This document shows, one piece after another, positions 1,691-51,750 of a DNA stretch of 64,000 bases. The DNA comes from a virus. Within the stretch, counting starts at the first letter, position 1. Every line of letters begins with the position of its first letter. The notes beneath the pieces are model-generated. The model was not told the DNA's origin, did no database searches, and worked only from the letters and a program-made list of their open reading frames with translations. The stretch lies in IMG/VR virus record IMGVR_UViG_3300013111_000141, positions 1-64,000 of that record; one strand, written 5' to 3'. Both the position numbers and the translations under genes were made by a program.

Positions 1691-2701
1691 CTAATCCTCA
1701 GTTGCTGGATTAAGTAGTACAACTTCTTTTGTGATATATTTACAATCATATGTATCCTTTCTACTATTTATAGTAGTAATTGTTTCTAATATATTTTTAG
1801 CCATTTTCTCAGAAGCAACATCTATCATTTTACCATCAAGTGATGCGGCACCATGTCCTTCTTTAGATGCTCTATATAATGCATCAAGTATTCTGTCAGC
1901 CATGTGTATTTCTTCAGATGATGGTGTGAATACTTCATTTGCAAGTGGAATTTGTGACGGATGAATCGCCCACTTACCAGTACATCCAAGAGCAGCAGCA
2001 CGCTTAGCAGCAAGTACATATCCCTCTGTATCCTTAATATCCCCATAAGGACCGTCTATTGGACGTAATCCATATGCCCTACACGCAACTACCATCCTAC
2101 TTAATGCAGAATGCCACTGATCTCCTGGATAATTCTCATTCAATCCACCAATATTAGTAGTTCTTGCTCTTGTAGATGCAGCGTAATCAGCAACTCCAAA
2201 ATGCATGGATTCTAACCTAGAATTAACACTCTTTCTTGCAATTTCATCAACATTAGACATACCTAGAGCGGTTTCTATTAGACACTCTAACTGAATATGT
2301 TGGTACAAATCATGTTTTATCTCTAGTGTATTAATAATACATTCAACCATATATATATCATCATATACACCTACTTTTGGTATTAATATAGTATCTAAGT
2401 TCTCACCACAATGTTCTACTAATTGTATAACATCATCTAACCAATAACCAGTTTCAAGTCCATTAATACGAACACATATAGTTTTGTTCGCACCTTTCCA
2501 ATCAAGACTATTAACAGCCTCAATGACATTTAAACGAGCCTGTATTTTATCTGATGTTGCAACTGAATCTTCTAAATCTAAAAATACAAAATCGGCATCA
2601 GAATTTAATGCCTTCTCAAACATTTTAGGACTAGATCCAGGTACTGTTAAATCACAACGTTGTAATCTAGATACTGATGGTTCATAAACTGTATAACTCA
2701 T
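1691..2701 (-). CDS. mcl: L-malyl-CoA lyase (CitE/Mcl family)
   Basis: A 336-residue TIM-barrel aldol lyase that cleaves or forms malyl-CoA from acetyl-CoA and glyoxylate. Visible family signatures are the CoA/substrate loop PGSSPKMFEKAL (22-33), the LDLEDSV acidic motif (41-47), a conserved Arg in VRINGLETGYW, HFGVADYAAS (about 168-177), the TTNIGG loop and GKWAIHPSQ near 240. The pattern fits bacterial Mcl1 rather than citrate-lyase CitE. In bacteria that use it, Mcl with a thioesterase replaces malate synthase. Together with the isocitrate lyase at 59393-60670 it would give a route from acetyl-CoA plus glyoxylate to malate. It sits among capsid-cargo genes but lacks the targeting N-terminus. 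Length is normal for the family. Confidence 0.92.
   Translation of the reverse strand: MSYTVYEPSVSRLQRCDLTVPGSSPKMFEKALNSDADFVFLDLEDSVATSDKIQARLNVIEAVNSLDWKGANKTICVRINGLETGYWLDDVIQLVEHCGENLDTILIPKVGVYDDIYMVECIINTLEIKHDLYQHIQLECLIETALGMSNVDEIARKSVNSRLESMHFGVADYAASTRARTTNIGGLNENYPGDQWHSALSRMVVACRAYGLRPIDGPYGDIKDTEGYVLAAKRAAALGCTGKWAIHPSQIPLANEVFTPSSEEIHMADRILDALYRASKEGHGAASLDGKMIDVASEKMAKNILETITTINSRKDTYDCKYITKEVVLLNPATED
1765..1772 (-). promoter_or_regulatory. Possible T4-type late promoter (TATAAATA)
   Basis: A perfect TATAAATA octamer on the minus strand inside the 3' end of the malyl-CoA lyase gene, embedded in a short palindrome (CTACTATAAATAGTAG). A transcript from it would have a leader of about 70 nt before the basic capsid-type protein starting at 1687. 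The octamer is frequent in AT-rich DNA, so this is tentative. Confidence 0.35.
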
Positions 2702-11357: not shown

Positions 11358-12495
11358 CAACTTTCCTCATAATATAACAAATTTCGTACTTCTCCATTTC
11401 AGTAAGTCCACGTGTGATTTCTAATGGTGGTAGTATCTTTATTTCATCTAATAACTCAAATCGTTCCTTTGCAATACTCATCATATCATCACCCATCATA
11501 TAACCACGTATAAACCTACCCATAACAAAACAAAATAAACCACCAGATTTTAATACTTTATTACACTCATCTACAGTTTTTCGCCAATAACCATCCAACC
11601 AGTTAGAATATGTAGAGTATAAATTAGTAGATTGTTCATCTGAACCACCATACAATTCTAAATCATAATATGGAGGACAAAAGAAAATCTTATCATAATC
11701 ATCATCAACAACCACCGACATATTCTCTGACGATATACAAAATGTCTTTAAATCATGAGGTGGACCAAAAATATCTAATGATGTAACTTCTTCAAAGACA
11801 CCATCAATCGTATCTAATACATCTTTTTGCACATCTACTATATGAATATCTCTATAATTTGTACTATTTGTAGTTGCTAATATAGGCGAACACCAAGAGG
11901 CAGACGGTATTAACATTTTCTGATCTACTGTATCAGAGTATTCATCACATTTAATTAATAAAGACCTATATACAGTTGGACTAAATACTGACATTTGTCC
12001 AGTGACTGTTTTCATCGTTACAACAAAAGTTTCATAATTTCCAATATAACTATCTTTAAAAACAGAAGGTATCGTTATACATGGATCAATTTTTCCTACT
12101 TCCAACGCATTCTTATACACAACCTTTATACTCATCCCATCATATCCCATAGAATCTAGCATACTTGGAAGATTCACATTACGTATAAATCTAACATTAT
12201 TTGAAACTAACTTTATTTCATTTCCCATAATAGGTATAGTATTTACTGGCATTGGTTCAACATAAGACAATCTACGTTGAAAATATAATTTCAAAGGTTC
12301 ATCTGAATGAATGAAATCATAACACCAATCATACCATGATTTTTTTGTTTTTAAAGCAACAACTCGTATATCAGAATCATCAAATTTATCCCATAGTTTT
12401 CCAAGTTGTTCTGTTTTATAAAACTCTTCACGTGATAATGGGTTTATTTCACTTCTGATAATATCAATAAAATCAGATTCATTATATATTTTCAT
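11350..12495 (-). CDS. Putative DNA methyltransferase (CPPYYDLE type)
   Basis: 381 residues. The catalytic-type motif DKIFFCPPYYDLELYGG (about 273-288) corresponds to motif IV of amino-methyltransferases, and a glycine-poor SAM-site-like segment PSASWCSPILATTNS..IHIVDV lies before it. The C-terminal part (KSGGLFCFVMGRF) follows the usual beta-strand order. The large N-terminal region is not recognised. Phage proteins with a PPYxDLE motif are usually annotated as modification methylases. It lies downstream of alanine dehydrogenase with a 4-nt overlap. Confidence 0.65.
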   Translation of the reverse strand: MKIYNESDFIDIIRSEINPLSREEFYKTEQLGKLWDKFDDSDIRVVALKTKKSWYDWCYDFIHSDEPLKLYFQRRLSYVEPMPVNTIPIMGNEIKLVSNNVRFIRNVNLPSMLDSMGYDGMSIKVVYKNALEVGKIDPCITIPSVFKDSYIGNYETFVVTMKTVTGQMSVFSPTVYRSLLIKCDEYSDTVDQKMLIPSASWCSPILATTNSTNYRDIHIVDVQKDVLDTIDGVFEEVTSLDIFGPPHDLKTFCISSENMSVVVDDDYDKIFFCPPYYDLELYGGSDEQSTNLYSTYSNWLDGYWRKTVDECNKVLKSGGLFCFVMGRFIRGYMMGDDMMSIAKERFELLDEIKILPPLEITRGLTEMEKYEICYIMRKVDE

Positions 12496-13601
12496 TCCTC
12501 GTAATACTCCATAAGTTCTAATGATTCAGCAACCATTAAATTAGTGATTCTACCATTATGTGTATATATACCATTTGTGAAATTAGTATCCACGTTATCA
12601 AGTCCCATATCAGCCAAAACTGTTATATATGGTAATGTCGCCTTAGTAAGTATGTCAGTCGCACTTTTAGGATATGCACCAGGCATATTAGACACACAAT
12701 AATGAACAACCCCGTGATGCATAAATACAGGGTTTTGATGACTCCTAATCTGTGACGTTTCAATACAACCACCTTGGTCAATAGACACATCAACCACCAC
12801 CGAACCTTTCCTCATACTTTTTACCATATCTTCAGTAACAACAATAGGAGCTTTCTTTCCTGGTATTGAAACTGCACCAATAACCAAATCAGCATCTTTA
12901 ACAGCGGGTTCTAAATTCCATGAAGTAGAACACTTATATACAATAGAAGTATTCATATGACCCCTACCCAAATACTCCCAACGATAATCGGTTTCCAACC
13001 CTAAAATAGTAACATTAGCACCCATCCCATTTGCCATCTCTGCCGCATGTCTACCAACAACACCATCACCAACAACTACCACATTACCAGAATTAACACC
13101 ATTAATTTTTCCTAGTTGGACACCAGACCCATCAAAAAACATTGACTTATCTGTATATTGAAGATAATAACTACCAATAGTAACTGCCATATTACCAGCA
13201 ATAGCAGACATAGGTTCCAGCAACGGTAAATTACCAAAATTATCTGTTATTGATTCATATGCTATGGCAGTAGTATTGGTGGATAACAATTTAAGTGTCA
13301 GTTCTTTATCTACACCCGCAAGATGAAGATAAGTAAATAATATTTGCCCATTAAAATATTTGTATTCTTCCACTTGAGGTTCTTTAACTTTAACCACAAT
13401 ATCCGAATCCCATGCATAAAAGTCATGACATATAACAGCACCAGCTGCTGTGTAATCATCATCCGAATAACCAGAACCAATCCCAGCTTCAAATGTTACA
13501 CATACAGAGTGCCCTCTAGCAACCAATTCACGCACACCATTTGGGGTAATTGCTACCCGATATTCATTATCCTTTATTTCTTTGATTAATCCAATTCTCA
13601 T
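12492..13601 (-). CDS. ald: Alanine dehydrogenase
   Basis: 369 residues, the normal length. Catalyses L-alanine + NAD+ to pyruvate + NH3 + NADH. Seen: N-terminal IGLIKEIKDNEYRVAITP, substrate-binding Lys in VKVKEPQ (about 73-79), catalytic His in FTYLHLAG (about 93-96), the Rossmann loop VVVGDGVVGRHAAEMA (about 170-185) and the C-terminal NMPGAYPKSAT. The start is fixed by homology although it lies 35 nt inside the upstream PurN-like gene. In an infected cell it would link amino-acid nitrogen with pyruvate and NADH. Confidence 0.93.
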   Translation of the reverse strand: MRIGLIKEIKDNEYRVAITPNGVRELVARGHSVCVTFEAGIGSGYSDDDYTAAGAVICHDFYAWDSDIVVKVKEPQVEEYKYFNGQILFTYLHLAGVDKELTLKLLSTNTTAIAYESITDNFGNLPLLEPMSAIAGNMAVTIGSYYLQYTDKSMFFDGSGVQLGKINGVNSGNVVVVGDGVVGRHAAEMANGMGANVTILGLETDYRWEYLGRGHMNTSIVYKCSTSWNLEPAVKDADLVIGAVSIPGKKAPIVVTEDMVKSMRKGSVVVDVSIDQGGCIETSQIRSHQNPVFMHHGVVHYCVSNMPGAYPKSATDILTKATLPYITVLADMGLDNVDTNFTNGIYTHNGRITNLMVAESLELMEYYEE

Positions 13602-14209: not shown

Positions 14210-16363
14210 TCACCTCAAATCTTTATCAAAATCATCTACCATGATTGCTTCATGTTCTAAAAGTCCATCTAATTCCCCTTTCAAATTAGATTCATATGCC
14301 TTTTCTAAAATGTTTAACGCATCCTTTGTATTAGATGATGTAAAAGTTTTATCTGTCAATCTATACCTTGCATCATGATGCAAGGTCAATCTAGACCTTG
14401 CATCAAATCCCAATGAAGATTTAAAACAATCAGGAACATTAACCACAGACTTCACCATTTTACTATTTAACTCATCTGAAACACCCCTATATCTTCTACC
14501 AAATGGGAATATCAAACGTCTTAATATAAACCCAATGAACTTTGAAGGATAATTATCTAAAATGTCCTCAAACGACTTTTGAATATTATATAATCCAGAT
14601 TCAGCACCCCACGTGGCATATAATATATCATTCTTCTTATCCATATCATCAGTATCTTCGTATCGTTTTAATACAGCAGATGTTATATACAATTCAGAAA
14701 ATGCATCTGCAAACCTACCAGATATCCTTTGTCGTTTCTTAAGATTAGAACCCAACACAGCTATACTTATATCAGATAACAATGCAAAGTTCTTCGATTC
14801 CAATTCAATACGTTTATAATATTTACCAATTTCACATGAAACGTCTTTCGGTTTGGATATAAACATACCACCAGTAATGTTATGATATAATGAACCAAAT
14901 ATATTACCAATAGTATATTTAATATGTCCTATTAACGCCTTATTAAATGCAATTGCATCATTACATTCGGCAGAAGTTACTTCATCTTTTATAAATGGAT
15001 GACACCTTAAAGATCCTTGAGAAAACACAATCAACGATCTCGTTAATATATTCGCACCCTCAACAGTATTAGCAATAGGTTGTGTTATATAATAATTCAA
15101 TAATAAATTATTAGGACCATCAGATATACCCTTACCGGCTAAAATATCCATACCATCAATAACACATTGACGCATCCTTTCAGTACATTGATATTTCAAC
15201 ATAGCAGAAATAACAGAAGGTTTCTCACCATTTACTATTGCCGTAGTGGTTAGATTACACGCAGCCTCTACAACATAACATTGTCCAATTATCCTAGACA
15301 ATGGTTCTTCAATACCTTCCATCTTGGAAATTGGAATTTTAAATTGTTTTCTTATCCTAGAATATGCAGTAGTAACTTTTAATGTATGTTTAATACCAGC
15401 CATAGATAATGATGGTAATGATATTGCCCTACCAGCCGCAAGACATGCCATTAACATTCGCCAACCCTTTCCTACACCATCAATTCCACCTATAACATGA
15501 TTCAATGGTAAAAATACATCTTTACCATAATTTGGTCCATTCATAAATGCTTGTCTAGCGGGATAATGTCTGCGTCCTATACAAACACCCTTAGTATCAG
15601 TTGGAACTAATACTAAACTTATACCACCAATAGGAGGTGAATCATCCGTCTCTTTCAATAACTCATCAGGATCTACAATATGACACGCAACACCAAGTAA
15701 TGTAGATACTGGTCCAAGTGTGATATATCGTTTTTCCCAATTTAATCTAATACCTAATACCCTTTCACCCTCATATTCCCCATATTCAACAACACCATAA
15801 TCTTCCATTGCCGCAGCATCTGAACCAGAATATGGTCCTGTTAATGCAAATGCTGGTATATCCTCACCTGATGCCAATGTAGGTAACCATTTATCTTTTT
15901 GTTCTTGTGTACCGAACTCATAAAGCAATTCACCAGGACCCAAAGAATTTGGAACCATAGTAGTAATTGCTAATGATATACTTCTTGATGCTAAAATTGA
16001 TATGATACACGATTGTGCATATGCTGAAAATTCCAAACCACCATATTCTTTCTTGATATTAAGCGCAAAAAAACCATTATCTTTTAAATAATTCCACACT
16101 TCAACTGGTAAATCTTTATGAGTGATATTAACATCCCAATCCGATACCATTTCACAAACAGTATCAACTTCAGAATTAATAAAATCGTGTTCTTCTTGTG
16201 TTAATTCAGTTTGTTCTGTATTTAATAATATATCCCAATTAGGTCTACCACTAAATAACTCTGATTCCCACCATACTGTGCCAGATTCTAATGCCTCTCT
16301 TTCTGTATCTGATATTTTTGGTAAAATCTTTTGAAATAATTTCATACCATATTCATTCATCAT
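14210..16363 (-). CDS. fadE: Acyl-CoA dehydrogenase, FadE type
   Basis: 717 residues. First step of beta-oxidation: FAD-dependent desaturation of acyl-CoA, passing electrons to ETF. SGTVWWESELFSGRPNW near residue 28 is typical of gammaproteobacterial FadE, as is the long C-terminal region beyond the ordinary 380-residue acyl-CoA dehydrogenase core. Visible are IKKEYGGL, ALTGPYSGSDAA (FAD/substrate loop, about 173-184), AGRAISLPS, and TVEGANILTRSLIVFSQGS, which holds the likely catalytic Glu. Escherichia coli FadE is about 814 residues with N-terminal membrane helices; this one starts after that region, so it is probably soluble. Expressed from the promoter at 19212-19240 with the VWA protein. 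No ETF gene is seen, so host ETF would be needed. Confidence 0.93.
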   Translation of the reverse strand: MMNEYGMKLFQKILPKISDTEREALESGTVWWESELFSGRPNWDILLNTEQTELTQEEHDFINSEVDTVCEMVSDWDVNITHKDLPVEVWNYLKDNGFFALNIKKEYGGLEFSAYAQSCIISILASRSISLAITTMVPNSLGPGELLYEFGTQEQKDKWLPTLASGEDIPAFALTGPYSGSDAAAMEDYGVVEYGEYEGERVLGIRLNWEKRYITLGPVSTLLGVACHIVDPDELLKETDDSPPIGGISLVLVPTDTKGVCIGRRHYPARQAFMNGPNYGKDVFLPLNHVIGGIDGVGKGWRMLMACLAAGRAISLPSLSMAGIKHTLKVTTAYSRIRKQFKIPISKMEGIEEPLSRIIGQCYVVEAACNLTTTAIVNGEKPSVISAMLKYQCTERMRQCVIDGMDILAGKGISDGPNNLLLNYYITQPIANTVEGANILTRSLIVFSQGSLRCHPFIKDEVTSAECNDAIAFNKALIGHIKYTIGNIFGSLYHNITGGMFISKPKDVSCEIGKYYKRIELESKNFALLSDISIAVLGSNLKKRQRISGRFADAFSELYITSAVLKRYEDTDDMDKKNDILYATWGAESGLYNIQKSFEDILDNYPSKFIGFILRRLIFPFGRRYRGVSDELNSKMVKSVVNVPDCFKSSLGFDARSRLTLHHDARYRLTDKTFTSSNTKDALNILEKAYESNLKGELDGLLEHEAIMVDDFDKDLR

Positions 16364-19253: not shown

Positions 19254-19700
19254 TTATTTCATAAAATCGGTAAGTTTTGGTTGACCAAACCATTTCATCA
19301 TCAATTGATGTTCCTCATCTGTCTGTTCTTCTAATTTAATACATGGGTGCAACATATCACCCATAATAATATTACCACCACCAATCCTTCTTTTACATAA
19401 ATCAACATTATCACGCATAATATCAACACCATAAAGAGTAGACAAAGCAACAGTCAATTCAATTCCATTCTCTAATTTCTTTATTAAAACTTCCCCTAAA
19501 AATTGTCCATCACCACACGCAGGATCAATGAAGGTTTTCGTGGAATCAACAAACAATTCTTCTGGTAAAGAATCTAACATTTTCTGTACTAATTCAGTTG
19601 GTGTAAAATACTCGGCAGTTGATTGTATTCTTTGTTCATCCCTTTCTATTTGACTCATGTAAGAATGATTACGGACTCTATTTTTAATTTGATCTAACAT
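19254..19700 (-). CDS. DNA adenine methylase, SAM-binding half (motifs X and I-III)
   Basis: 148 residues. Contains TAEYFTP (motif X region, about 29-35), DPACGDGQFLGEVL (motif I SAM site, about 62-75), LYGVDIMRDNV (motif II) and a GDML motif III. It stops just before where the catalytic NPPF would follow. That motif opens the partner gene at 19684-20619. The two products together contain a complete gamma-type N6-adenine methylase, split between motifs III and IV with the gene order reversed. Confidence 0.85.
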   Translation of the reverse strand: MLDQIKNRVRNHSYMSQIERDEQRIQSTAEYFTPTELVQKMLDSLPEELFVDSTKTFIDPACGDGQFLGEVLIKKLENGIELTVALSTLYGVDIMRDNVDLCKRRIGGGNIIMGDMLHPCIKLEEQTDEEHQLMMKWFGQPKLTDFMK

Positions 19701-20619
19701 AATTCCTTTCTTCGACTTTTAATCCAAAGTGATCATACATCTCTTCATCTGACATTTTTTTATCTAAAGGGATGTCTGGCAAAGAACCAAATACTTTTTC
19801 ATTACCAAAACCACACCATTTAGCAGTTTTAAAAATATACTTAAATAGTTTAAGATTAAGATTATGCGCTAAATTTTTCCCTTTATCCTCAGTGTCTACT
19901 TCTATATAATATCCCATATCGGTTATACCCAATTCCCCATCATCATAAAATGGTTTCGTGTAACCGCTCCTAGACCACATAACTTTTTTACTGTCAGCAA
20001 AAGTCTGTCTTTTAGAAGAATACCAAATTTGTTTATTAGTATGTAATACTGGATAAATGTGTTTACACGTTTTAATCTTACTCAAACTAGAGTTAAGATT
20101 CTTTTCGCGGCGTGTCTTTTTGTTCTTTAATTTTATTACATTCCATAACAAAATATTATGACAGGTTACATAATCTTTTTCCACCTTTAATTTATTTTTG
20201 GTGTTAAAAATTACTTTCTGATGAATAGAATAAGATTTCTCACAAAAATCATTTGGTAAATAAAAAACAGTATCATCTAACTTTATATTAAAATCTCCAT
20301 CATCGGTGTAGATTTTTGACATATCACCATCATCGGTAGTATTCCAAATATTATAATTCGCAAAGGAAGATCCTACTGTCGGAAAATATTTTCCCGTGTC
20401 CAAATGTAATTCTGTGAGTTTCTTATCCTTAAATAATTGTAATATTTTACTACTAGGACTCTGAAAGCTAGAAGGAGAAACCTGACACAATACACCATCT
20501 TCTTTGAGTAAAGAATCAAAGCTCAATCGTGTAAAGTCAATCCATAATTTATGTTGAGTTTTACCCCGATCTGTAGTATCTTGGAATGGTGGATTTGCAA
20601 CAACAACATCAAATTTCAT
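19684..20619 (-). CDS. DNA adenine methylase, catalytic/target-recognition half (motif IV)
   Basis: 311 residues. It opens MKFDVVVANPPFQDT: catalytic motif IV (NPPF) lies within the first 12 residues, where an intact gamma-type enzyme would have it 150-200 residues in. The rest looks like motifs V-VIII (LLKEDGVLCQVSPSSF, NYNIW) and a target-recognition domain. It lacks any SAM motif I, which is supplied by 19254-19700, whose start overlaps this gene's end by 17 nt. Probably an obligate heterodimer protecting host-type sites from the nuclease upstream. Confidence 0.85.
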   Translation of the reverse strand: MKFDVVVANPPFQDTTDRGKTQHKLWIDFTRLSFDSLLKEDGVLCQVSPSSFQSPSSKILQLFKDKKLTELHLDTGKYFPTVGSSFANYNIWNTTDDGDMSKIYTDDGDFNIKLDDTVFYLPNDFCEKSYSIHQKVIFNTKNKLKVEKDYVTCHNILLWNVIKLKNKKTRREKNLNSSLSKIKTCKHIYPVLHTNKQIWYSSKRQTFADSKKVMWSRSGYTKPFYDDGELGITDMGYYIEVDTEDKGKNLAHNLNLKLFKYIFKTAKWCGFGNEKVFGSLPDIPLDKKMSDEEMYDHFGLKVEERNYVRSN

Positions 20620-21761
20620 TCAAATAAACCAGATTTTCCAAAATCTACATATGTATTTACAGAAGTAGAAATCTCTTTGGATTTTTTAGGTCTAAGTTCT
20701 CCCCACTCCAACTCAAGTCCTTCTTTTTCGTGATACCGTTTTCCATCATAAACATCTTTTGTATTATCTCCTTTATACCAACAACCATTACTGTTAAGAG
20801 TAAATGGAATATCAATTTCTAAAATAATTTCATCACCAGATTTAAACTCAAATCTGATATTTTTTGCATGACGAAAATAATTTAACTCACAAATAGGAAT
20901 TGTTGACAACATTGTTTTAAATCGTTTATTAACTAGAGTGTTGAGATATTGATTTCCATTATTTCCACCAAAAGCAAGAAGTTCTTCTACACCATCAATA
21001 CCAGACATTTTCACAACACGATTGTAGATTAAATTATCGGGAACATGATTTTTTAAGAAGTTATAAGCTATATCTGCACCTTTGTTACCTATTTCATAAC
21101 AAGAAGATTCCCACCTAGTTTTATCAAAAAACTTATGAGTAGTGGAATTAACAAATTCTTCTTTCATAGTATCTTGTAGTTTCTTTAAATCTCGAAGAGC
21201 CTCAACCGCGGACATTCCATTTTTTTTCTCAACAATCTTATCTCTTTTATTGCCAGAACCACGAAATCTAGTACCATCATCAGGATTTATAAACATTCCA
21301 ACTCCATCAGACTTAAAAAGAAAATTCATGATAAATGAATTATAAGTTCCACTACACACTTGAGGTCTTTTCATACTACCTTCATAGTTTTTCAGAGAAA
21401 AGGAAATTACTTTCTCTTTATTATCAGTAGTAACAACAATAATAAAATCTCCCTTCATATTTAAATCACGATATTCTTTCTCAACATCAAAGACATTAAA
21501 GGTAGAATTTGGAAAAGTATCAATCAATTCAGATACAAATGTCGGTGCCCACTTTACACAATTTTTATAATAATTAGTTTTAGATAACCCCCTAATACCT
21601 TTAAGTTTTGGGTGATTATCTAAATGATCTAATAAATCTTTTTTTATAGACTCTGATGTGTTTTCAGTAGCAACCCCATTTTTCTCAATTTCATCTTCAA
21701 TAATCCAAACCATCACTTTTTCACACGCATCTGATCTTAAATGTGCAACTGTGTTTGTCAT
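20616..21761 (-). CDS. Putative type II restriction endonuclease
   Basis: About 381 residues from the ATG giving MTNTVAHLRSDACEKVM (GGTG upstream; an earlier ATG lacks a site). KGDFIIVVTTDN..VISFSLKNYEG near residues 103-124 fits a PD-(D/E)xK core (D, then SxK). FGGNNGNQYLNTLV follows later. It leads the three-gene cassette with the split methylase and starts from the promoter at 21795-21823, so a restriction-modification system is the natural reading. The nuclease family is otherwise unrecognised, so substrate is unknown. Confidence 0.7.
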   Translation of the reverse strand: MTNTVAHLRSDACEKVMVWIIEDEIEKNGVATENTSESIKKDLLDHLDNHPKLKGIRGLSKTNYYKNCVKWAPTFVSELIDTFPNSTFNVFDVEKEYRDLNMKGDFIIVVTTDNKEKVISFSLKNYEGSMKRPQVCSGTYNSFIMNFLFKSDGVGMFINPDDGTRFRGSGNKRDKIVEKKNGMSAVEALRDLKKLQDTMKEEFVNSTTHKFFDKTRWESSCYEIGNKGADIAYNFLKNHVPDNLIYNRVVKMSGIDGVEELLAFGGNNGNQYLNTLVNKRFKTMLSTIPICELNYFRHAKNIRFEFKSGDEIILEIDIPFTLNSNGCWYKGDNTKDVYDGKRYHEKEGLELEWGELRPKKSKEISTSVNTYVDFGKSGLFE

Positions 21762-21794
21762 AATATTCACCATTCATAATTAACTTATACCCCA

Positions 21795-21831: not shown

Positions 21832-22704
21832 TTATAAAAATTCATCCAGTGTTGATACGTTACTCTTATAATTCGTCAATAATAATTCTTTCCTTTCCTT
21901 TTGATCCTCCCCATATTTCTTAGTACTTACCATAGTGTATGTAAGATCCCATTCCGTCTGATTCCATGTACTAAACCATTCACGGAGAGTTGGGTTAGAA
22001 TTATATGTAATCATACATTTATTGCCAGACTTTGATACCTTTTCATAGAATTCTCTGTGATCAAATCCTTTGTGCATATCTCCATCCTTTCCATATAAAG
22101 CATCCTTGATATCATATGGTGGATCTAGAAATAGAAATACATTTGGATCATCATCAATCAATTCAGAATAATCTAGGTTCGTGATTTTCCAGTTCTTGAT
22201 AATCTTTCCATAAGTCATCAGAGATTCTATTACCCTAAAGTTGAAACAATCTCTCATTGCCCATGTGGACATAGTACCCCTTTCAGTTAAACCAGAGAAA
22301 GACATTCTATTCATTGCATACCACCTCCACCCAACCTCAAATGGGTCTGTCTGATCTCCTATCTCTGCTCTGATTTCCTGGAAAAATCCACGACTCTTAT
22401 CCACATCATCGCCTACTGATTCCTTCTTTTTCTTTAAAATATTGACTAATTGTTCGGTATCGCTCTGCAATGTAATCCAGAAATAATATAGATTCTGGTA
22501 CTTATCATTTATATGAATGGGAATATTTGGGAATAAACGTGCAAATGCCAAGGCAGGAGAACCCCCACCACCGAAAGCATCTCGATACTGGGTAATTTCC
22601 TGTATGTTAGATGGAAGTTTGGTATCATGAAACAGATACTTCATTGCCTTTGATTTACCACCTGGATACCTGAGTGGTGTTTTATAGTTGTTTAATGATC
22701 TCAC
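21832..22704 (-). CDS. dam: Dam-type N6-adenine DNA methylase (D12 class)
   Basis: 290 residues. SAM site LRYPGGKSKAMKYL (about 11-24), FGGGGSPALAFAR, and catalytic FLDPPYDIKD (about 191-200) are the D12-class signatures of T4 Dam, which methylates A in GATC. The start is a GTG that overlaps the upstream stop (TAGTG). Likely protects phage DNA. Length fits. Confidence 0.92.
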   Translation of the reverse strand: MRSLNNYKTPLRYPGGKSKAMKYLFHDTKLPSNIQEITQYRDAFGGGGSPALAFARLFPNIPIHINDKYQNLYYFWITLQSDTEQLVNILKKKKESVGDDVDKSRGFFQEIRAEIGDQTDPFEVGWRWYAMNRMSFSGLTERGTMSTWAMRDCFNFRVIESLMTYGKIIKNWKITNLDYSELIDDDPNVFLFLDPPYDIKDALYGKDGDMHKGFDHREFYEKVSKSGNKCMITYNSNPTLREWFSTWNQTEWDLTYTMVSTKKYGEDQKERKELLLTNYKSNVSTLDEFL

Positions 22705-30803: not shown

Positions 30804-32530
30804 AATCGTTCTTTACATAATGTTTCAATTATATTTTTCATTGCCATAGATTGTTCATCAGGGTCAATCTCTATATTCAATACATAAGATTGTAACTCAT
30901 CATCTAATGCAGTTTCTAATGCATTCCTGAATTGAAAAGAATCTGATATATACATCCCAACACCACCATCCATTAAATCTGTTATTTTATCATATCTCCA
31001 ATTATGAATATCATTGAACTCACCTTCCATAATTGCCTTTTCAGTAGAATATCCCCTATTGTTAAGTATAAGAATAACAGTATTCAACTCATTACGAATA
31101 TGTGATGAAAATTCAGAACCCGTCATTTGAAAAGCACCATCACCGACAACAACTATTGGTCTTTTATGTGGTTTGGCATATTTAACACCAACTGCGGCTG
31201 GAACTGAAAATGACATAGATGTATAATAAGCCATACATAAAAATTGTCCTTTCCTCATAGGAACATCAATAATACCAAATAAAGATTCACCTATATCAGA
31301 TATTACTATATGATCCTCTGTTATCAATTCACCTAGAGTATCAAATACATATTCTAATTTAGTAGGACTAGTCATATCATGTGACTTAAAAGTTAATCTA
31401 CTAGTGTCTATAATATTATTCCATCTACTTATACAATTATCAGATTGAATATCAGAATCATCTAAATATACCAAAAATGAACGAACCAACTCATAAAAAC
31501 TAGAAGTTGTAGATTTTAATGTTTTAACATGTTTATTTTCAAACATGATACCATCATCCATATTAATAGAAATATCAGAAACAAAATCAAATGATTCAAT
31601 ATCCGTATTAACTATACCAATAGTGACAATACAATCTGATTTTTTTATCTCATCAACAACTGACGAATCAGAAAATAAACTTGAAACACACCCAATAGAA
31701 TTTCTACTAAACTCAGAAATTGTTGATTTACCCAACAACGTAGTGAATATTGGAATATTTAACTTCTTTGCAAAATTAAGAATATGATTTTCTAATGAAT
31801 TACGAAATACCTCATGACCAATAATTAGAACCCTATTAGTTGCAGATTTAAATTTATTCAAATCATCATATGGTAAATTTATAGATTTACATTCTTTAGA
31901 AAATGGAGTATCCTTAACAATAACATTATTAGAATCCTTCACATATGTTGGAAAGATTTTTGATGGTACATCATCCCCATATACTGTTTGAAATTTCTTC
32001 AAGTATTCATCAACTGAACGTACTATATCTTTATTTGAAAATTCAATATAAACTGGTCTAGAATGTTTTCGCATTTTATTCAATGCCAAATGAATCATAG
32101 ACATATTAAAAAACATATCTTCAGAATCTAACGAATAAGTATTAGTGGTTATATTCTTAAATATATCCCTTTGTGTATTTGCATTATTGATTGTATGGTG
32201 TCTATTTGGATTTACCAATAAATCATCAGATGATGGTTTGCCAACAAGAATAACTACTGGTGATCTTTCCGCATATGCACCCGCAACTGAATTCATAATA
32301 TTCATAGCACCAACAGAATAAGTAACACATACAACACCACACCCACGTAATCTACCATATGCATCAGCGGCATATCCAGCTGAATCTTCCCTACTTACTC
32401 CTACGTATTCTATATCAGAATGTTCTTCAATTTCACGCATAAAATTTAACGTGTAATCACCCGGTATACCAAATATATGACCTGCACCATATAACTTTAA
32501 CTGTTCTATTAAAAAATGTCCTAAATTCAT
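30800..32530 (-). CDS. Pyruvate/indolepyruvate decarboxylase (ThDP enzyme)
   Basis: 576 residues, three-domain ThDP fold. Non-oxidative decarboxylation of a 2-oxo acid. Seen: GIPGDYTLNF, SREDSAGYAADAYGR with the ThDP-activating Glu, the His pair RHHTINN (about 111-117) of PDC/IPDC enzymes, and the ThDP motif VGDGAFQMTGSEF (about 444-456) closing at ILNNRGYSTEK. The His pair separates it from acetolactate synthase. Whether it takes pyruvate, indolepyruvate or another oxo acid cannot be read here. Tryptophanase and alanine dehydrogenase both make pyruvate. Confidence 0.85.
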   Translation of the reverse strand: MNLGHFLIEQLKLYGAGHIFGIPGDYTLNFMREIEEHSDIEYVGVSREDSAGYAADAYGRLRGCGVVCVTYSVGAMNIMNSVAGAYAERSPVVILVGKPSSDDLLVNPNRHHTINNANTQRDIFKNITTNTYSLDSEDMFFNMSMIHLALNKMRKHSRPVYIEFSNKDIVRSVDEYLKKFQTVYGDDVPSKIFPTYVKDSNNVIVKDTPFSKECKSINLPYDDLNKFKSATNRVLIIGHEVFRNSLENHILNFAKKLNIPIFTTLLGKSTISEFSRNSIGCVSSLFSDSSVVDEIKKSDCIVTIGIVNTDIESFDFVSDISINMDDGIMFENKHVKTLKSTTSSFYELVRSFLVYLDDSDIQSDNCISRWNNIIDTSRLTFKSHDMTSPTKLEYVFDTLGELITEDHIVISDIGESLFGIIDVPMRKGQFLCMAYYTSMSFSVPAAVGVKYAKPHKRPIVVVGDGAFQMTGSEFSSHIRNELNTVILILNNRGYSTEKAIMEGEFNDIHNWRYDKITDLMDGGVGMYISDSFQFRNALETALDDELQSYVLNIEIDPDEQSMAMKNIIETLCKERL

Positions 32531-34678: not shown

Positions 34679-34981
34679 TTATGCTTTTAACTTTAAATCT
34701 TCCTCCGTTACAATATCTTCATACCCATCATACTCACGAACATAAAACTTTAACCCCTCTGTAACATATGACAATTTCATATTATCAAACTCATATAAAT
34801 TATGAGTTGGTTCTGACATCGCCATCACCTGTTTATGAAATGATTTCTCATCCCCATGCAAAAATTCATAAATTAATTCAGCATCCATTCTAAGTGATTG
34901 GGGTTTAATGGCAAATCCACTACCCCAACCAGCATGTATAAGAACCCCTACTTTACCATCTGCACTATAATATTTACCCAC
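34679..34981 (-). CDS. Hypothetical protein, 100 aa
   Basis: MGKYYSADGKVGVLIHAGWG, alpha/beta, with a His in the middle (FLHGDEKSFHKQVMAMSEP) and an acidic C-terminus. Overlaps the end of fadJ by 8 nt. No family recognised. The tmRNA acceptor piece begins immediately after its stop. Confidence 0.6.
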   Translation of the reverse strand: MGKYYSADGKVGVLIHAGWGSGFAIKPQSLRMDAELIYEFLHGDEKSFHKQVMAMSEPTHNLYEFDNMKLSYVTEGLKFYVREYDGYEDIVTEEDLKLKA

Positions 34982-36962
34982 CTACGTTCTCCACTAATTG
35001 CGAACCTTGTGAATGATATTGTTTAGTAATTTCTTTGTTTACTTCATCTGAATAATGTAATGGTCCACCCCTAAATGGAGCAAATCCAGTACCAAAAATA
35101 ATACCAGAATCTATAAGGTCAGAAGATTCTACAATACCCTCATCTAAACATAATTTACACTCTGAAATAATTTTCCCTATTAACCTTGACTTTATCTCTA
35201 TTTTAGGATCTGCATAAATCTTATCTACGGGTTTACCTTTATTATATATATAAAACCCCCTACCAGATTTAATACCCAATTTACCTTTGTCTACTAACTT
35301 CTTTAATCTCTTTGGAACAGTAATTCCAAGATCCTCACTTATTATATCCGTAACAAAATAACAAACATCAAGTCCTACAGTATCTGCCAATAATAAAGGT
35401 CCCATTGGCATACCAAAATCAGTAAAAGAATTGTCAATTTCTTCTTTACTATATCCTTCATCTAACATATTAATAGCCTCAATAAGTGTAGGCATTAACA
35501 CACGATTAACTAAAAATCCTGGACTTGATTTAACTTTTAATGGTAACTTATCAATATGTCTACAAAATGACATAGACTTCTCTATAACATCCTCTGAAGT
35601 AATATCTGAATATACCACTTCAACCAAAGGCATTTTTGCAACTGGATTAAAAAAGTGTATACCAACTAATCTCTCAGGATTTTTCATTTCACTTGATAAT
35701 ACTTCCAACTTGATAGAAGATGTATTAGTGCCCAATATAGCGGTACTTTTCATTTCAGATTCTAATTCACTATATAAGTGACGTTTAATATCCGCATTTT
35801 CAACAATAGCCTCAATGACTATATCTGCGGAAGATATACCATATCCATTTTTATCAGGAATCAACCTATCATACACTTCATTGATTAAATAATCCTTCCC
35901 AGAAAATCTTTTTGCATAAAATTTATACGATCTTTTCATTGCGGCAGCTATGGTGTTATCATCAATATCCTGTAAAGTCACCTTATATCCCCTTAGAGAC
36001 GCCCACATTGCAATATCTCCACCCATTGCACCAGCACCTATAACGTGGACATGTTTAAGATCTAACTTAGATTTATCACCAGAAGATTTAAGTAAATCCT
36101 GTAACTTAAACACTCGTAATAAATTCTTCGCAGTATCTGTCATTGCTAACTTAGAAACTGACTCCGCCTCTGCATTCATAAGATGATGCTCATTATATCC
36201 ATATTTTTCCCATATATCAACTAAAGCATATGGTGCTGGATAGTGTGATTTTTTTACCTCTTTCCTTAAAGTTCTACGCAATTGCATTGATAATAACCTT
36301 CTACCAATACCAGAATTCAATACATAATCTAATTTATCTGGTCTTCTAACTGGTGGACACTTTGCAAGTACATCTTCCGCAGATTTAACTAATAAACGTT
36401 CAGGAACCGCATAATCAACTAATCCCATCTTTTTTGCTTGATATACTGATAAAGTACGTCCACTTAACATCATACCCATAGCCTTAATAACACCAAGAAC
36501 TCTAATAGACCTAACAGAACCACCAAATCCAGGATGTATACCCAACTTAACTTCAGGAAATCCGACTCGGATATTAGGTGAATCTAATATAATTCTATAA
36601 TCACATGATAATGCAAGTTCCAATCCACCACCAAGACACAATCCATTAATTAATGCTAATGTAGGAAATTCCATGTCATCAATTAACCACATCACTTCTT
36701 GTCCTTTAGTAATGGCTTCATAAGCATCATCATACTCATGAAAATCCTTAAATTCTGTAACATCAGCACCAGCAATAAACCCAGTTGATTTATCAGAACA
36801 AATAACCATACCATCAGGATTATCAGATTTAACCTCTAATAATACATCTTTTAATTCCGTTAATACTTCACCAGATAATACATTCATACTACCATAAGAA
36901 TAATCAAAATGTACCCATGCTATATTGCTAAAATATTTTAATTTGAAATGTTTATAATTCAT
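34974..36962 (-). CDS. fadJ: Enoyl-CoA hydratase / 3-hydroxyacyl-CoA dehydrogenase (FadJ/FadB)
   Basis: 662 residues, bifunctional beta-oxidation enzyme. N-terminal hydratase domain: GFIAGADVTEF, NGLCLGGGLELALSCDYRI with catalytic Glu, GFPEVKLGIHPGFGG with the second Glu (about 60-150). C-terminal dehydrogenase: NAD loop VIGAGAMGGDIAMWAS (about 297-312), catalytic VGIHFFNPVAKMPLVEVV (His, about 423-440). E. coli FadJ is 714 and FadB 729 residues, so this is slightly compact but keeps every catalytic block. It lies 3 nt downstream of the thiolase gene, an order reversed from many bacterial operons. Confidence 0.94.
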   Translation of the reverse strand: MNYKHFKLKYFSNIAWVHFDYSYGSMNVLSGEVLTELKDVLLEVKSDNPDGMVICSDKSTGFIAGADVTEFKDFHEYDDAYEAITKGQEVMWLIDDMEFPTLALINGLCLGGGLELALSCDYRIILDSPNIRVGFPEVKLGIHPGFGGSVRSIRVLGVIKAMGMMLSGRTLSVYQAKKMGLVDYAVPERLLVKSAEDVLAKCPPVRRPDKLDYVLNSGIGRRLLSMQLRRTLRKEVKKSHYPAPYALVDIWEKYGYNEHHLMNAEAESVSKLAMTDTAKNLLRVFKLQDLLKSSGDKSKLDLKHVHVIGAGAMGGDIAMWASLRGYKVTLQDIDDNTIAAAMKRSYKFYAKRFSGKDYLINEVYDRLIPDKNGYGISSADIVIEAIVENADIKRHLYSELESEMKSTAILGTNTSSIKLEVLSSEMKNPERLVGIHFFNPVAKMPLVEVVYSDITSEDVIEKSMSFCRHIDKLPLKVKSSPGFLVNRVLMPTLIEAINMLDEGYSKEEIDNSFTDFGMPMGPLLLADTVGLDVCYFVTDIISEDLGITVPKRLKKLVDKGKLGIKSGRGFYIYNKGKPVDKIYADPKIEIKSRLIGKIISECKLCLDEGIVESSDLIDSGIIFGTGFAPFRGGPLHYSDEVNKEITKQYHSQGSQLVENVGG

Positions 36963-36965
36963 AAG

Positions 36966-38270
36966 TTATCTCTTTAAATTTTCAACTAATATTGCACCAC
37001 CTTGCCCATGCCCAATACATAAAGATGCAACCCCATAATGACCACCATTTGATTCTAACGTCTTAATTAAATGATATACTATCCGTGTTCCAGAAGCACC
37101 TACAGGATGACCCATACTAATAGAACCACCATGAACATTTAGTTTTTCATCAGGTATTAACCCAAATGGTTCATCCAATCCAAACTCAGATAAACAATAA
37201 TCCACATCATTCATTGCCCTTGTACAACCAATAACTTGTGATGCAAAAGCTTCATTTAATTCCCAACTATCAATATCATCACATCGTAACCCATTTCTCA
37301 TAACAAGAGGAACTATTGACTGAACTGGACCCAATCCCATCTCTGATGGATCTACTCCAGCCCACTTAGTATCAATAATTTTTGCAATAGCTTTATCACG
37401 TAACCCATACTTATCCAAGGCATCCTCACTTGCCAACAAAACAAATGAAGCACCATCCGTAATAGGTGAAGAATTACCCGCAGTCACATTACCAAATATT
37501 TTATCAAAAACTGGTCTTAATTTCCCTAATTTTTCAATAGTGTTCTTAGATCTAACAGATTCGTCTTTATTATAAAAATTCCCATCAGTATCATATATAG
37601 TAACAATCTCATCCTCTAATACATTAGTATTTTGTGATATCGACGCTTTCATATGACTGTTTAATGAATAATCATCCATATCATTTCTAGATATATTAAA
37701 CTTATATGCCAAATTCTCAGCAGTCTGACCCATTGATAAATTAATAGTTGGATCTTTTAATGCACGTAATAAACTAATCACTGGGACTAATAACTTAGGT
37801 CTAAACTTAAGTAACACAGACAACTTCTTAGATAATGTCTTAGCTAATGTAAATTCAGACAACCACATAGTCATATCATCATTAAATAATAATGGTGCCC
37901 TACTCATAGTTTCCGTACCACCAGCAATAATCAAATCGGACTGTCCACAAGATATACTCCTATATGCCGAATCAATTGACTGCAAACCAGAAGCACAATT
38001 TCGTTGTACCGTATATGCCGGTATATTAACATTAAGACCTAATCGTAATGCTAACAATTTTGCAATATTACACTCATCAGCGTTAGGATTCATACAACCA
38101 ACAACCAATTCATCCACATCATCATTACTAATATCATTACGAATTAACATAGGTCTAACCGCCTGAATCGCCAAATCCAATGCCTTAAACTTTCCAGGAC
38201 TTCCCTTCGCCTTTAAAAAAGGTGTCCTACTACCATCTACAATATATACATCATTTAACTTGTATTTCAT
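36966..38270 (-). CDS. fadI: 3-ketoacyl-CoA thiolase (FadI type)
   Basis: 434 residues, matching FadI (436) rather than FadA (387). Splits 3-ketoacyl-CoA to acetyl-CoA and a shortened acyl-CoA. Nucleophile Cys in QRNCASGLQS (about 88-97), NEAFASQ, HGGSISMGHPVGASGTR (catalytic His, about 382-398), and the second Cys in SLCIGHGQGG near the C-terminus (the usual CIGGGQG has His for one Gly). The long loop ending TINLSMGQTAE is typical of FadI. Pairs with FadJ in the same transcript. Confidence 0.94.
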   Translation of the reverse strand: MKYKLNDVYIVDGSRTPFLKAKGSPGKFKALDLAIQAVRPMLIRNDISNDDVDELVVGCMNPNADECNIAKLLALRLGLNVNIPAYTVQRNCASGLQSIDSAYRSISCGQSDLIIAGGTETMSRAPLLFNDDMTMWLSEFTLAKTLSKKLSVLLKFRPKLLVPVISLLRALKDPTINLSMGQTAENLAYKFNISRNDMDDYSLNSHMKASISQNTNVLEDEIVTIYDTDGNFYNKDESVRSKNTIEKLGKLRPVFDKIFGNVTAGNSSPITDGASFVLLASEDALDKYGLRDKAIAKIIDTKWAGVDPSEMGLGPVQSIVPLVMRNGLRCDDIDSWELNEAFASQVIGCTRAMNDVDYCLSEFGLDEPFGLIPDEKLNVHGGSISMGHPVGASGTRIVYHLIKTLESNGGHYGVASLCIGHGQGGAILVENLKR

Positions 38271-38669: not shown

Positions 38670-39689
<1,020 letters not shown>

Positions 39690-39701: not shown

Positions 39702-41633
39702 TTATTTGGTTTCGGGTTTACCCTCTGGAACAGGATCCACTGGTTCTTCAACCACCTCTGCATTGACAACTTCGGCATCTACAGTCTCGGATGTTGTAGT
39801 GGAATCATCTCCAACATCTTCCCCTGTTGGTTCTGGTTTTTGTAATTTTGCAGACAACTCTACTAATGATTGTACTTTAGTATTAATATCATCTAAATCT
39901 TCACCAGACATAGACTCTTTTAATTCTGCAACACTATTTACAATATCAGTTCTTTCTTCATCAGTAATTACAATTTCCTCATCTGATAATTTACCCTCAA
40001 CATCATTAATAAATCCTTCAGCCATATTTCTAGCACCAACTAATGCAGTATACTTCTCATCTGCCTCTTTATGTTCTTCACCCTCTTTAATCATACGTTC
40101 TACATCCTCATCAGATAATCCAGATGAAGATTTAATTTCAATGGACTGTTCCTTACCAGTATTTTTATCTTTGGCAGAAACATGCATAATACCATTAGCA
40201 TCAATATTGAATTCAACTTCAATTTGTGGTGTTCCGCGTGGTCCTGGTTGAATTTCTGTCAAATCAAACCTACCTAAAGAATTGTTACCAGAAGCAACTG
40301 AACGTTCACCTTGCAGAACATGAATAGTAACTGCCGGTTGATTATCTTCGGCAGTTGAAAATACTTCACTTTTTTTCGTTGGAATAGTAGTATTCTTTTC
40401 AATTAATGTGGTCATTACACCACCCATAGTTTCAATACCTAATGATAATGGAGTTACATCAAGCAATAATACATTATCAATACCACCAGATAACACACCA
40501 CCCTGTGTAGCAGCACCAAGAGCAACTGACTCATCAGGATTTACATCCTTTCTCGGTTCAATACCAAAAATAGATTTTACCATTTCTTGAACTTTAGGCA
40601 TTCTAGTTTGTCCACCAACTAAAATAACATCATCAACCTTAGTAACATCTGCATCCTTTAAAGCAGTAACACATGGGGTTTTTGTACGTTCAATTAATTC
40701 AGATACCATCTTCTCCAATTTAGAACGTGAAATCTTAACATTTAAATGTTTAGGACCAGTTGCATCCGCAGTAATATATGGTAAATTTACTTCAGTTTCT
40801 TGAGTCGATGACAACTCAATTTTACACTTCTCTGCCGATTCTTTTAATCGTTGTAATGCAATAGGGTCATTATGAAGATCCACCCCGTTTTCTTTTTTAA
40901 ATTCATCACAAAGATAATCAATAAGTCGTAAATCAAAATCCTCACCACCTAAAAATGTATCACCATTAGTAGACAATACTTCAAAGGAATATTCTCCATC
41001 CACATTAGACATCTCAATAATAGAAACATCAAAAGTACCACCACCAAGATCATAAACAGCAACTACCTTATCATCTTTAACATCACCTTTATCTAAACCA
41101 TAAGATAAAGCTGCAGCTGTAGGTTCATTGATAATTCGCATAACATCTAGTCCAGCAATCTTACCAGCATCCTTTGTTGCTTGTCTTTGTGAATCATTAA
41201 AATAAGCAGGAACAGTAATAACTGCCTGTGTCACTTCAGAACCCAAATATGACTCCGCATCTTTTTTTAATTTCATTAAAATTTTTGATGAAATTTCTGG
41301 GGGAGATAATAACTCACCACCAGATTTTACCCACGCATCACCATTATCCGCCTCTACAATGTCATAAGGCACCATGGATATGTCCTTTTGAACTGCATCA
41401 TCTTTAAACTTTCTGCCAATTAATCTCTTAACCGCAAACAATGTATCTTTTGGATTAGTCACCGATTGTCTCTTAGCTGACTGTCCTACTAATATTTCCG
41501 AATCCGAATGTGAAACTATAGATGGTGTCGTCCTAGAACCTTCACCATTTTCAATTACTACTGCCTTACCATTCTCTAACACAGCTGCGCATGAATTAGT
41601 AGTACCCAAATCAATACCAATAATATTACCCAT
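39702..41633 (-). CDS. dnaK: DnaK (Hsp70) chaperone
   Basis: 643 residues, full length. N-terminal [15 protein letters not shown], phosphate loop [13 protein letters not shown] (about 196-208), [14 protein letters not shown], linker [16 protein letters not shown], substrate domain ([18 protein letters not shown]) and an acidic C-terminal tail with a host-like lid. Every ATPase motif is intact. No GrpE gene is seen in the window. Phage DnaK would assist folding of many phage enzymes. Confidence 0.95.
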
Positions 41634-50207: not shown

Positions 50208-51488
50208 TTATAAAAAACTATCCAAATCAGTCACAGGTTCAACCGAATCTATTCTTGATGTTGCAATCTCAAAATACTCTTGTTCTTTCTCGATACCGAT
50301 AAAATCAAAACCCTCATCTTTTGCAGCCATTCCAGTTGAACCACTTCCCATAAATGGGTCAAGAACAGTTCCACCTTTTGGTGTTACGAGTCTGCATAGG
50401 TATTTCATTAACTCTACAGGTTTAACCGTTGGATGTATATTCTTTCGTTCTGTTACAAATCTTCCAGTAACATCATTATCTATCTTTGATTTATCCATTT
50501 CATGTGGATCTCGTCTACCAGACATACTTGATGTCTTTTTGATAGGCATTTCATCACAACCCTGATTTCTTTCTTTCTTAGACACCTTTGGCGAATAGAA
50601 ATATCTTGCAGCTGAACCATCATCTCCATATTCTCTACCGGATGGGGATCCTGTTGATTTATCCCAAATACCACCAGATTTTGAACCTTCACCTTTGTAT
50701 TTACCAGCTTTAGTATATGGAAATACCTCTTTCACAACATCAGAACCATCATGCATTACATTTGATGGGAATCTACCAATTGAAGTGGATTCAATATCAG
50801 ACGGTTTCCAATTATCATCATGCATTACACCTAATGAAGACATTCCCCTATGTGTTCTTTCTTCATTTCGTACTCTACAACCATCAATATTAATACCACC
50901 AGTTCCATGTTTCAATACATTTGTGACAATAGTCTTTTCTGATAATGGTTTCCTAGCCATTACAATCGGTTCGTGTGCCGGTTTTAATGCAGTTCCCCAA
51001 CCTTCCCATTCTGAATTACCTCTATCTACAACAACCTCTGTAGTTGCATTTGTCTCGTTTGGTCTATAACCCTGTTCTTTTCTAGTTTTAGAAATACTTA
51101 CCTGATATCCACAACTTTTAGTTCCAACTACTTCTCTTTCATTGCCCTGTTTTGCATCTACCGATTTTCCGATGTTGTGCGACTTTGGAAACCCAGAACC
51201 ATAGAGCCACATAATCTGATCTCGTATCTCAAACCCTGCGTCCTCAATAGCAACTGCCATTCTATGATAGGTTCTAGAACCAGAAAATGCAAGTAAATGA
51301 CCACCGGGTTTCAATAACTTTAATGCAAGTTCCCACGTTTCTTTAGAAAATGCTATACCAGTATCATCCCATTGTTTCCCCATAAATCCTAACTCATATG
51401 GAGGATCCGTAACAATTGATTCAACTTGCACACCATCATCTATCATCTGTTTCATTCTATCAATACAATCATCACAATACAGTATCAT
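50208..51488 (-). CDS. DNA methyltransferase (DPPY class, beta type)
   Basis: About 426 residues from MILYCDDCIDRM (an earlier in-frame Met is possible at 51518). VTDPPYELGFMGKQWDD near residue 27 is motif IV; VLDPFMGSGSTGMAA near the C-terminus is the SAM motif I, giving beta-class order (IV before I). A large central region (HNIGKSVDAKQG, MARKPLSEKT, KPAHEP..) is typical of phage modification methylases of this type. Base target (A-N6 or C-N4) not readable. Confidence 0.87.
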   Translation of the reverse strand: MILYCDDCIDRMKQMIDDGVQVESIVTDPPYELGFMGKQWDDTGIAFSKETWELALKLLKPGGHLLAFSGSRTYHRMAVAIEDAGFEIRDQIMWLYGSGFPKSHNIGKSVDAKQGNEREVVGTKSCGYQVSISKTRKEQGYRPNETNATTEVVVDRGNSEWEGWGTALKPAHEPIVMARKPLSEKTIVTNVLKHGTGGINIDGCRVRNEERTHRGMSSLGVMHDDNWKPSDIESTSIGRFPSNVMHDGSDVVKEVFPYTKAGKYKGEGSKSGGIWDKSTGSPSGREYGDDGSAARYFYSPKVSKKERNQGCDEMPIKKTSSMSGRRDPHEMDKSKIDNDVTGRFVTERKNIHPTVKPVELMKYLCRLVTPKGGTVLDPFMGSGSTGMAAKDEGFDFIGIEKEQEYFEIATSRIDSVEPVTDLDSFL

Positions 51489-51750
51489 CACCACCATCCT
51501 TACTGGGGAAAAAATCATTTACTTGATGACCTTTAAATTTAATAGTATCAGGTTTTTCAAAACACGACACATACACACGCCCCAATTCTTCCATTCTCAA
51601 CTCAAATAATTTAGATACTGCAACTACATCTTCACGTTCTGAACTATCCTTCATTTTTTTAATGATTAATTCTAAATCATCAGAAAATCCCCACACCCTC
51701 ATTATTAATTGATCTAACTCATACAACTTATCTATTTTATCTTTCTTCAT
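51472..51750 (-). CDS. Hypothetical protein, 92 aa
   Basis: MKKDKIDKLYELDQLIMRVW, helical, with later FELRMEELGRVYVSCFEKP. Overlaps the methylase start. Unknown. Confidence 0.55.
   Translation of the reverse strand: MKKDKIDKLYELDQLIMRVWGFSDDLELIIKKMKDSSEREDVVAVSKLFELRMEELGRVYVSCFEKPDTIKFKGHQVNDFFPSKDGGDDTVL

What the first reader, a model, noticed from the sequence alone, without database searches (positions are those of the whole stretch)
19254..21761. Restriction-modification cassette with a split, order-permuted methylase
An N6-adenine methylase of gamma type is broken exactly between motif III and motif IV. The NPPF-bearing half is encoded first and opens with MKFDVVVANPPF; the SAM-binding half follows with a 17-nt overlap. 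This equals a circular permutation of an X-I-III-IV-TRD protein and gives the motif order of beta-class enzymes from gamma-like parts. An endonuclease-like gene leads the cassette from its own promoter. It shows a possible path by which methylase classes interconvert.
Basis: partly seen in the sequence, partly recalled or inferred. Interest (0 to 1): 0.8.

Follow-up and report, generated by a model that had tools for sequence, protein, structure and literature searches.

The report
Two-piece methylase with swapped gene order
A marine virus carries a DNA-cutting gene next to a DNA-methylating enzyme made as two separate pieces in swapped order, and its relatives preserve what look like the in-between steps by which one class of this enzyme could turn into another.

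Summary
On the minus strand of a 96.8-kb virus record lie an endonuclease gene, a catalytic/recognition half (N, starts MKFDVVVANPPF) and a SAM-binding half (S', motifs X-I-II-III) overlapping by 17 nt. Both halves match complementary parts of one intact gamma-class methylase profile. The endonuclease models confidently; its only notable PDB matches are HinP1I. The cassette recurs in dozens of viral contigs and in several bacteria, so it is a real R-M system.

The 'broken, permuted gene' reading needs correcting. S' is a separate lineage of free-standing SAM subunits. Relatives have gamma-order S-N proteins followed by an S' gene; their own S domain is often degenerate. Most have an internal ATG, with a strong Shine-Dalgarno signal, exactly where the window's N begins. 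The window form is best explained as an S-N + S' pair that lost its redundant S. N-S' fusions (beta order) occur in at least three places. Some phages carry 2-4 divergent N genes with one S', suggesting a shared cofactor subunit. Two-chain activity, internal initiation and sharing are inferred, not shown. No earlier description was found in the searchable literature.

The parts
20616..21773 (-). Endonuclease gene, 385 aa (381 aa if it starts at 21761). PD-(D/E)XK candidate residues in 385-aa numbering: E18, D109, S126-x-K128, Q138, S141-G-T.
   Evidence: ORF; invariant columns across 24 homologs; AF2 pLDDT 90, pTM 0.85; Foldseek top PDB hits HinP1I, probability 0.97 and 0.95.
19684..20619 (-). 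N subunit: catalytic (motif IV NPPF onward) and presumed target-recognition half, 311 aa
   Evidence: Pfam Eco57I 2.5e-8; phrog_3689 8e-22; PDLC03273 positions 130-398
20584..20595 (-). Motif IV, NPPF (residues 9-12)
   Evidence: sequence
19254..19700 (-). S' subunit: SAM-binding half, 148 aa, motifs X, I, II, III
   Evidence: Pfam N6_Mtase 5e-5; phrog_21201, phrog_4376; PDB best match M.BseCI 1.5e-8 with the family profile; PDLC03273 positions 27-112
19599..19613 (-). Motif X (EYFTP)
   Evidence: sequence
19500..19526 (-). Motif I, SAM binding (DPACGDGQF)
   Evidence: sequence
19416..19433 (-). Motif II region (YGVDIM)
   Evidence: sequence
19350..19361 (-). Motif III region (GDML)
   Evidence: sequence
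19684..19700 (-). 17-nt overlap between the N and S' genes
   Evidence: identical length in L011 and L012
21795..21823 (-). Promoter-like site TTGACA-17-TG-GATAAT before the endonuclease gene
   Evidence: consensus scan, 11 of 12 matches; not proof of function

Best explanation
A phage-borne Type II restriction-modification system. The endonuclease is a HinP1I-like PD-(D/E)XK enzyme. The protecting methylase is a two-chain N6-adenine MTase: N carries NPPF catalysis and DNA recognition, S' carries the SAM pocket. The S' family is a free-standing gamma-type SAM domain that works in trans with N proteins. The split arose by domain takeover: gamma-order S-N enzymes acquired an S' partner, their own S domain decayed, and an internal start before FD...NPPY/F gave an N-only product. 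In the window's lineage S is gone and N begins exactly at that start. N-S' fusions then give beta motif order. Shown: genes, motifs, recurrence, the S' lineage, decay of S, internal Shine-Dalgarno enrichment, fusions, the endonuclease model. Inferred: the N-S' complex and its activity, actual internal initiation, direction of evolution, cleavage and recognition site.
For: (1) Same three-gene cassette in 34 deduplicated loci plus 5 fused ones, including Curtobacterium, Geodermatophilus, Micrococcales and Limnochordia genomes. (2) Both halves map to complementary parts of one intact gamma MTase profile. (3) dN/dS 0.15-0.17 in both halves. (4) Fused N-S' proteins L014, L052, L082, L087, L088 and ZPAH1 orf67 and Aeh1p090. 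(5) Gamma-order S-N followed by an S' gene: 47 deduplicated loci, plus 21 with a long N protein. (6) All S' but one truncated fragment fall together, apart from the S domains of S-N proteins. (7) Scored with a profile of partnerless gamma MTases, S' median 85 bits, S of S-N 23, S of long proteins 1.9. (8) Met eight residues before NPP[YF]: 36 of 51 S-N proteins with S' versus 0 of 19 partnerless ones, p=3e-8; Shine-Dalgarno pairing -4.4 versus -1.0 kcal at other in-frame Mets, p=1e-16, and stronger than synonymous shuffles, p=1e-5. (9) Endonuclease fold.
Against: No biochemical data. Many S domains in S-N proteins remain recognisable (55% above 15 bits), so they may still bind SAM. The backbone of the N tree is weakly supported, so polarity is inferred. 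The S' tree rests on about 140 columns and the AU test did not finish. The 51 internal starts are related sequences, not independent events, and part of the Shine-Dalgarno signal is set by the amino acids encoded (synonymous shuffles already average -3.1 kcal). The endonuclease has about 9% identity to HinP1I, and cyanophages P-RSM6 and S-SZBM1 carry it without N or S'. The fused-protein model is of low confidence (pTM 0.56).
Confidence: 0.74

Rival explanations
1. Simple circular permutation: one gamma MTase gene was duplicated in tandem and trimmed, so N and S' come from the same ancestral gene copy.
For: Both halves match one gamma profile; split exactly between III and IV; beta-order fusions exist. 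An ancient duplication of S could itself be the origin of S'.
Against: S' is one lineage shared by very different N families, GIY-YIG-N proteins and helicase-N proteins. S-N proteins keep their own S beside S'. S' and S do not pair off locus by locus in the tree.
Confidence: 0.15
2. S' is a regulatory or structural SAM-binding partner and not the cofactor half of the catalytic domain; N works with another subunit.
For: In S-N + S' systems the S-N protein still has an S domain that is often recognisable.
Against: In the window and the endonuclease cassettes N has no other SAM domain, and only one N and one S' match are found in the record. S' keeps motifs X and I in 98-100% of cases. N and S' are fused in several lineages.
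Confidence: 0.07
3. The methylase pair is not a protecting partner of the nuclease; the nuclease serves another role such as host DNA degradation, and the neighbourhood is incidental.
For: Orphan homologs of the nuclease in P-RSM6 and S-SZBM1, in whose whole records no N or S' was found.
Against: The association holds across dozens of viral contigs and in bacterial genomes where the nuclease is encoded either upstream or convergently.
Confidence: 0.12

Closest known systems
Gamma-class N6-adenine MTases (M.TaqI, M.BseCI, CamA, Eco57I type)
   Same: Motif chemistry (FTP, DPACGxG, NPPF) and homology of both halves. Weak Foldseek matches of the fused relative to TaqI, CamA and PglX.
   Different: Two chains; the cofactor half is a separate later gene; motif order IV... 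then X-I-III at gene level.
Beta-class amino-MTases and natural permutations discussed for DNA MTases (Bujnicki 2002; the BcnI pair, Vilkaitis 2002; both known here only by citation and from memory)
   Same: The order IV...TRD-X-I-III appears in the fused relatives.
   Different: Sequence kinship is to gamma families; in the window the order is spread over two genes; the route here is domain takeover with the intermediates still present.
Split C5 MTases such as M.AquI and M.EcoHK31I (from memory)
   Same: One MTase made from two polypeptides.
   Different: Those are cytosine-5 enzymes; here an N6-adenine type with a free-standing SAM subunit used by many partner proteins.
Type II endonuclease HinP1I
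   Same: Only PDB entries standing out in the fold search.
   Different: About 9% sequence identity, larger protein (385 vs 247 aa), recognition site unknown.
T4-like phage methylase genes (Shigella phage PSD9 ORF103/102, Klebsiella KpV477 030-028, Aeromonas Aeh1p090, ZPAH1 orf67), mostly annotated as hypothetical
   Same: Same S' family; split N then S' with a 17-nt overlap (PSD9), or fused N-S' (Aeh1, ZPAH1).
   Different: N carries an N-terminal GIY-YIG domain in PSD9 and KpV477; no HinP1I-like gene seen beside it.

Membership tests
Gamma-class N6-adenine MTase | Homology of both halves to gamma MTases, with NPPY/F | tested here: met
Gamma-class N6-adenine MTase | Motif order X-I-II-III-IV-TRD in one chain | tested here: not met
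   Two genes, N first, then S'
Beta-class amino-MTase | Single chain with order IV-TRD-X-I-III | tested here: not met
   Two chains in the window; met only by fused relatives L014, L052, L082, L087, L088
Beta-class amino-MTase | Sequence membership of beta-class families | tested here: not met
   Pfam hits are N6_Mtase and Eco57I; no beta-class family among the hits
Type II restriction-modification system | Endonuclease with a nuclease fold encoded beside an MTase | tested here: met
Type II restriction-modification system | Endonuclease and MTase act on the same site | not testable with these tools
   needs expression and digestion assays
PD-(D/E)XK endonuclease | Conserved D and (D/E/S)xK on the core sheet | tested here: met
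   D109, S126-x-K128 and E18 conserved in 24 homologs; strands 110-116 and 119-129 in the model
HinP1I family | Fold similarity | tested here: met
   probability 0.97, E 0.016, TM 0.46 on the HinP1I chain
HinP1I family | Sequence similarity | tested here: not met
   No PDB sequence hit to HinP1I with the protein or the profile
Split (two-chain) MTase | Two chains assemble into one active enzyme | not testable with these tools
   supported only by gene order, fusions and purifying selection

The most novel reading that the evidence does not exclude
S' is a common, exchangeable SAM-binding subunit that serves several target-recognising catalytic subunits in trans. Phages would gain extra methylation specificities by adding only N genes (arrays of 2-4 divergent N or S-N genes with a single S'), and S-N genes would make the N chain from an internal start. 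Beta-order MTases could then arise from gamma enzymes through this state.
Probability: 0.45. Interest if true: 0.85.

Novelty: new variant of a known kind. Interest (0 to 1): 0.72.

Why it matters
How DNA methyltransferase classes with different motif orders arose has been argued from end states. This family appears to hold the intermediate states in living sequences: intact gamma order with an extra SAM subunit, decayed SAM domain, N plus S' in two genes, and fused beta order. It also suggests that one cofactor subunit may be shared by several specificity subunits, an economical way for phages to escape restriction. Both ideas can be tested directly with pairs of small genes.

Tried and rejected
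Frame error joining the halves: rejected (recurrent overlaps, purifying selection). Halves from unrelated enzymes: rejected in that both fit one gamma profile, but S' is not simply the detached half of this N. Direct Pfam, NCBIfam or PDB sequence identification of the endonuclease: no significant hit; solved only by fold. Structure of the fused relative L014: low confidence (pTM 0.56); Foldseek gave gamma MTases with poor overlap, as expected if a sequential aligner meets a permutation, so it is weak support only. First mixed alignment A5 misaligned S' onto N and was not used. The scan with A2 used a peptide pattern containing the Met, so its loci (L050-L121) were left out of the Met count. 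Simple motif regexes for decay of S were inconclusive for motif X (p=0.25), so a profile score was used. Bujnicki 2002 and Vilkaitis 2002 are not held. AU test of S' monophyly did not finish.

Full report
Location and check. The window is bases 1-64000 of a 96,760-bp virus record. The endonuclease ORF begins at 21773 or, more likely, 21761. N (311 aa) opens MKFDVVVANPPF. S' (148 aa) carries EYFTP, DPACGDGQF, YGVDIM and GDML. N and S' overlap by 17 nt in different frames. A good promoter-like site precedes the endonuclease. Against L011 and L012, dN/dS is 0.15-0.17 for N and S' and 0.40-0.56 for the endonuclease, so there is no sign of decay in the methylase halves.

Do the halves fit one enzyme? 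N hits Pfam Eco57I and S' hits N6_Mtase. One PADLOC profile of an intact Type II MTase (PDLC03273, 432 aa) matches S' at 27-112 and N at 130-398, so the break lies between motifs III and IV as claimed. The S' profile's best solved relative is M.BseCI, a gamma-type enzyme.

The endonuclease. Sequence searches gave no significant hit. AF2 with 24 homologs gave pLDDT 90. Foldseek singled out HinP1I, probability 0.97 and 0.95, with nothing else credible. Invariant E18, G108-D109, K128, Q138 and SGT fit a PD-(D/E)XK core.

Recurrence. Scans of viral contigs and bacterial genomes were classified by script. Deduplicated, 34 loci have endonuclease + N + S', 5 have endonuclease + fused N-S', and 47 have a gamma-order S-N protein followed by S'. 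A further 21 have a long N protein followed by S', and 6 have N + S' without the endonuclease. Bacterial cassettes occur in Curtobacterium ammoniigenes (L289), Geodermatophilus (L294), two Micrococcales (L295, L300) and a Limnochordia bacterium (L291), with the endonuclease upstream or convergent. About a quarter of the cassettes have an extra ~375-aa ORF of unknown kind between endonuclease and N.

What the relatives show. In S-N + S' loci the S-N protein has gamma order, but its S domain is often degenerate; in L101, L105 and L187 motif I is unrecognisable. Scored with a profile made only from partnerless cellular gamma MTases, S' reaches a median of 85 bits, S of S-N proteins 23, and S of the long proteins 1.9. 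In the tree of SAM domains, S' of all kinds (viral, bacterial, T4-like, fused) fall together, apart from one truncated fragment, and away from the S of S-N proteins. So S' is an old free-standing lineage. The window's N has not simply been cut from its own SAM half; it uses a substitute that its relatives also carry.

Internal start. In S-N proteins with an S' partner, a Met lies exactly eight residues before NPPY/F in 36 of 51 non-redundant cases, against 0 of 19 partnerless gamma MTases (p=3e-8). This excludes loci whose search pattern contained the Met. That codon has a Shine-Dalgarno-like sequence averaging -4.4 kcal, against -1.0 at 419 other in-frame Mets (p=1e-16). It is also stronger than synonymous recodings (-3.1, p=1e-5) and than the same place in partnerless enzymes (-0.9, p=4e-6). 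The window's N starts at this position. Internal initiation is therefore likely, though not shown.

Fusions and classes. N-S' single proteins occur in three separate places in the endonuclease clade (L014/L052; L082/L087; L088), in Aeromonas phage ZPAH1 and in Aeh1. They have the motif order of beta enzymes from gamma parts. The N tree puts the endonuclease clade (support 100) among S-N and long-N forms that have S', but the deeper forks are weak.

Shared subunit? Several phages have 2-4 divergent N or S-N genes (27-48% identity) with one S' (L108, L114, L117, L120, L184, L204, L214, L257). In cyanophage ACG-2014f the only N and the only S' lie about 100 kb apart. S' also follows GIY-YIG-N proteins in T4-like phages and ResIII-helicase-N proteins. 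This suggests that S' serves different N proteins in trans; it is untested.

Literature. Text searches found no description of this family. Permutation of DNA MTases as such is known (Bujnicki 2002, Vilkaitis 2002, seen only as citations in PMC10305163 and PMC5974420). Subscription papers and REBASE could not be searched, so novelty is provisional.

Verdict. Observation confirmed. Interpretation right on the cassette and the III/IV break, and right that it bears on class interconversion; wrong on mechanism, which is more likely subunit takeover than a broken, permuted gene.

Noticed in passing
window 14210-16363, 34974-36962, 36966-38270, 59393-60670 (all -): The virus record encodes a FadE-type acyl-CoA dehydrogenase, a FadB-type hydratase/dehydrogenase, a thiolase and an isocitrate lyase: most of fatty-acid beta-oxidation plus a glyoxylate-shunt enzyme. 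No matching phage report stood out in one literature search.
   Followed up: partly
window 1691-2701, 12492-13601, 26192-27358, 30800-32530, 38670-39689, 39702-41633 (all -): Further host-like metabolic and chaperone genes: HpcH/HpaI-citrate lyase family, alanine dehydrogenase, dihydroorotate dehydrogenase, a TPP enzyme; DnaJ and DnaK by sequence.
   Followed up: partly
L022:3884-5011, L041:3790-4917, L047:716-1837: A ~375-aa ORF of unknown family sits between the endonuclease and N genes in 11 of about 40 deduplicated cassettes.
   Followed up: partly
L007:2506-4471; L010:2526-4459: In T4-like phages PSD9 and KpV477 an LEM-3-like GIY-YIG nuclease domain is fused to N and followed by S'; in KpV477 the N gene is itself in two ORFs.
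   Followed up: partly
L100:1340-4861; L301:532-4980; L293:1998-6545: 1,100-1,590-aa proteins with ResIII helicase and C-terminal N domain use the same S' family; L293 also has a T5orf172 (GIY-YIG) domain and two S-like stretches.
   Followed up: partly
L005:4962-6101; L006:4950-6119: The HinP1I-like endonuclease occurs without N or S' in cyanophages P-RSM6 and S-SZBM1.
   Followed up: yes
L305:4980-6538; L306:4986-6538: Two marine beta-proteobacterial genomes have the split in gamma order, S' gene first and N gene second.
   Followed up: no
window 21832-22704, 50208-51518, 55403-56443: Further DNA methyltransferase genes in the same record: a D12/Dam type next to the cassette and two with DPPY/SPPY motifs by sequence.
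   Followed up: no
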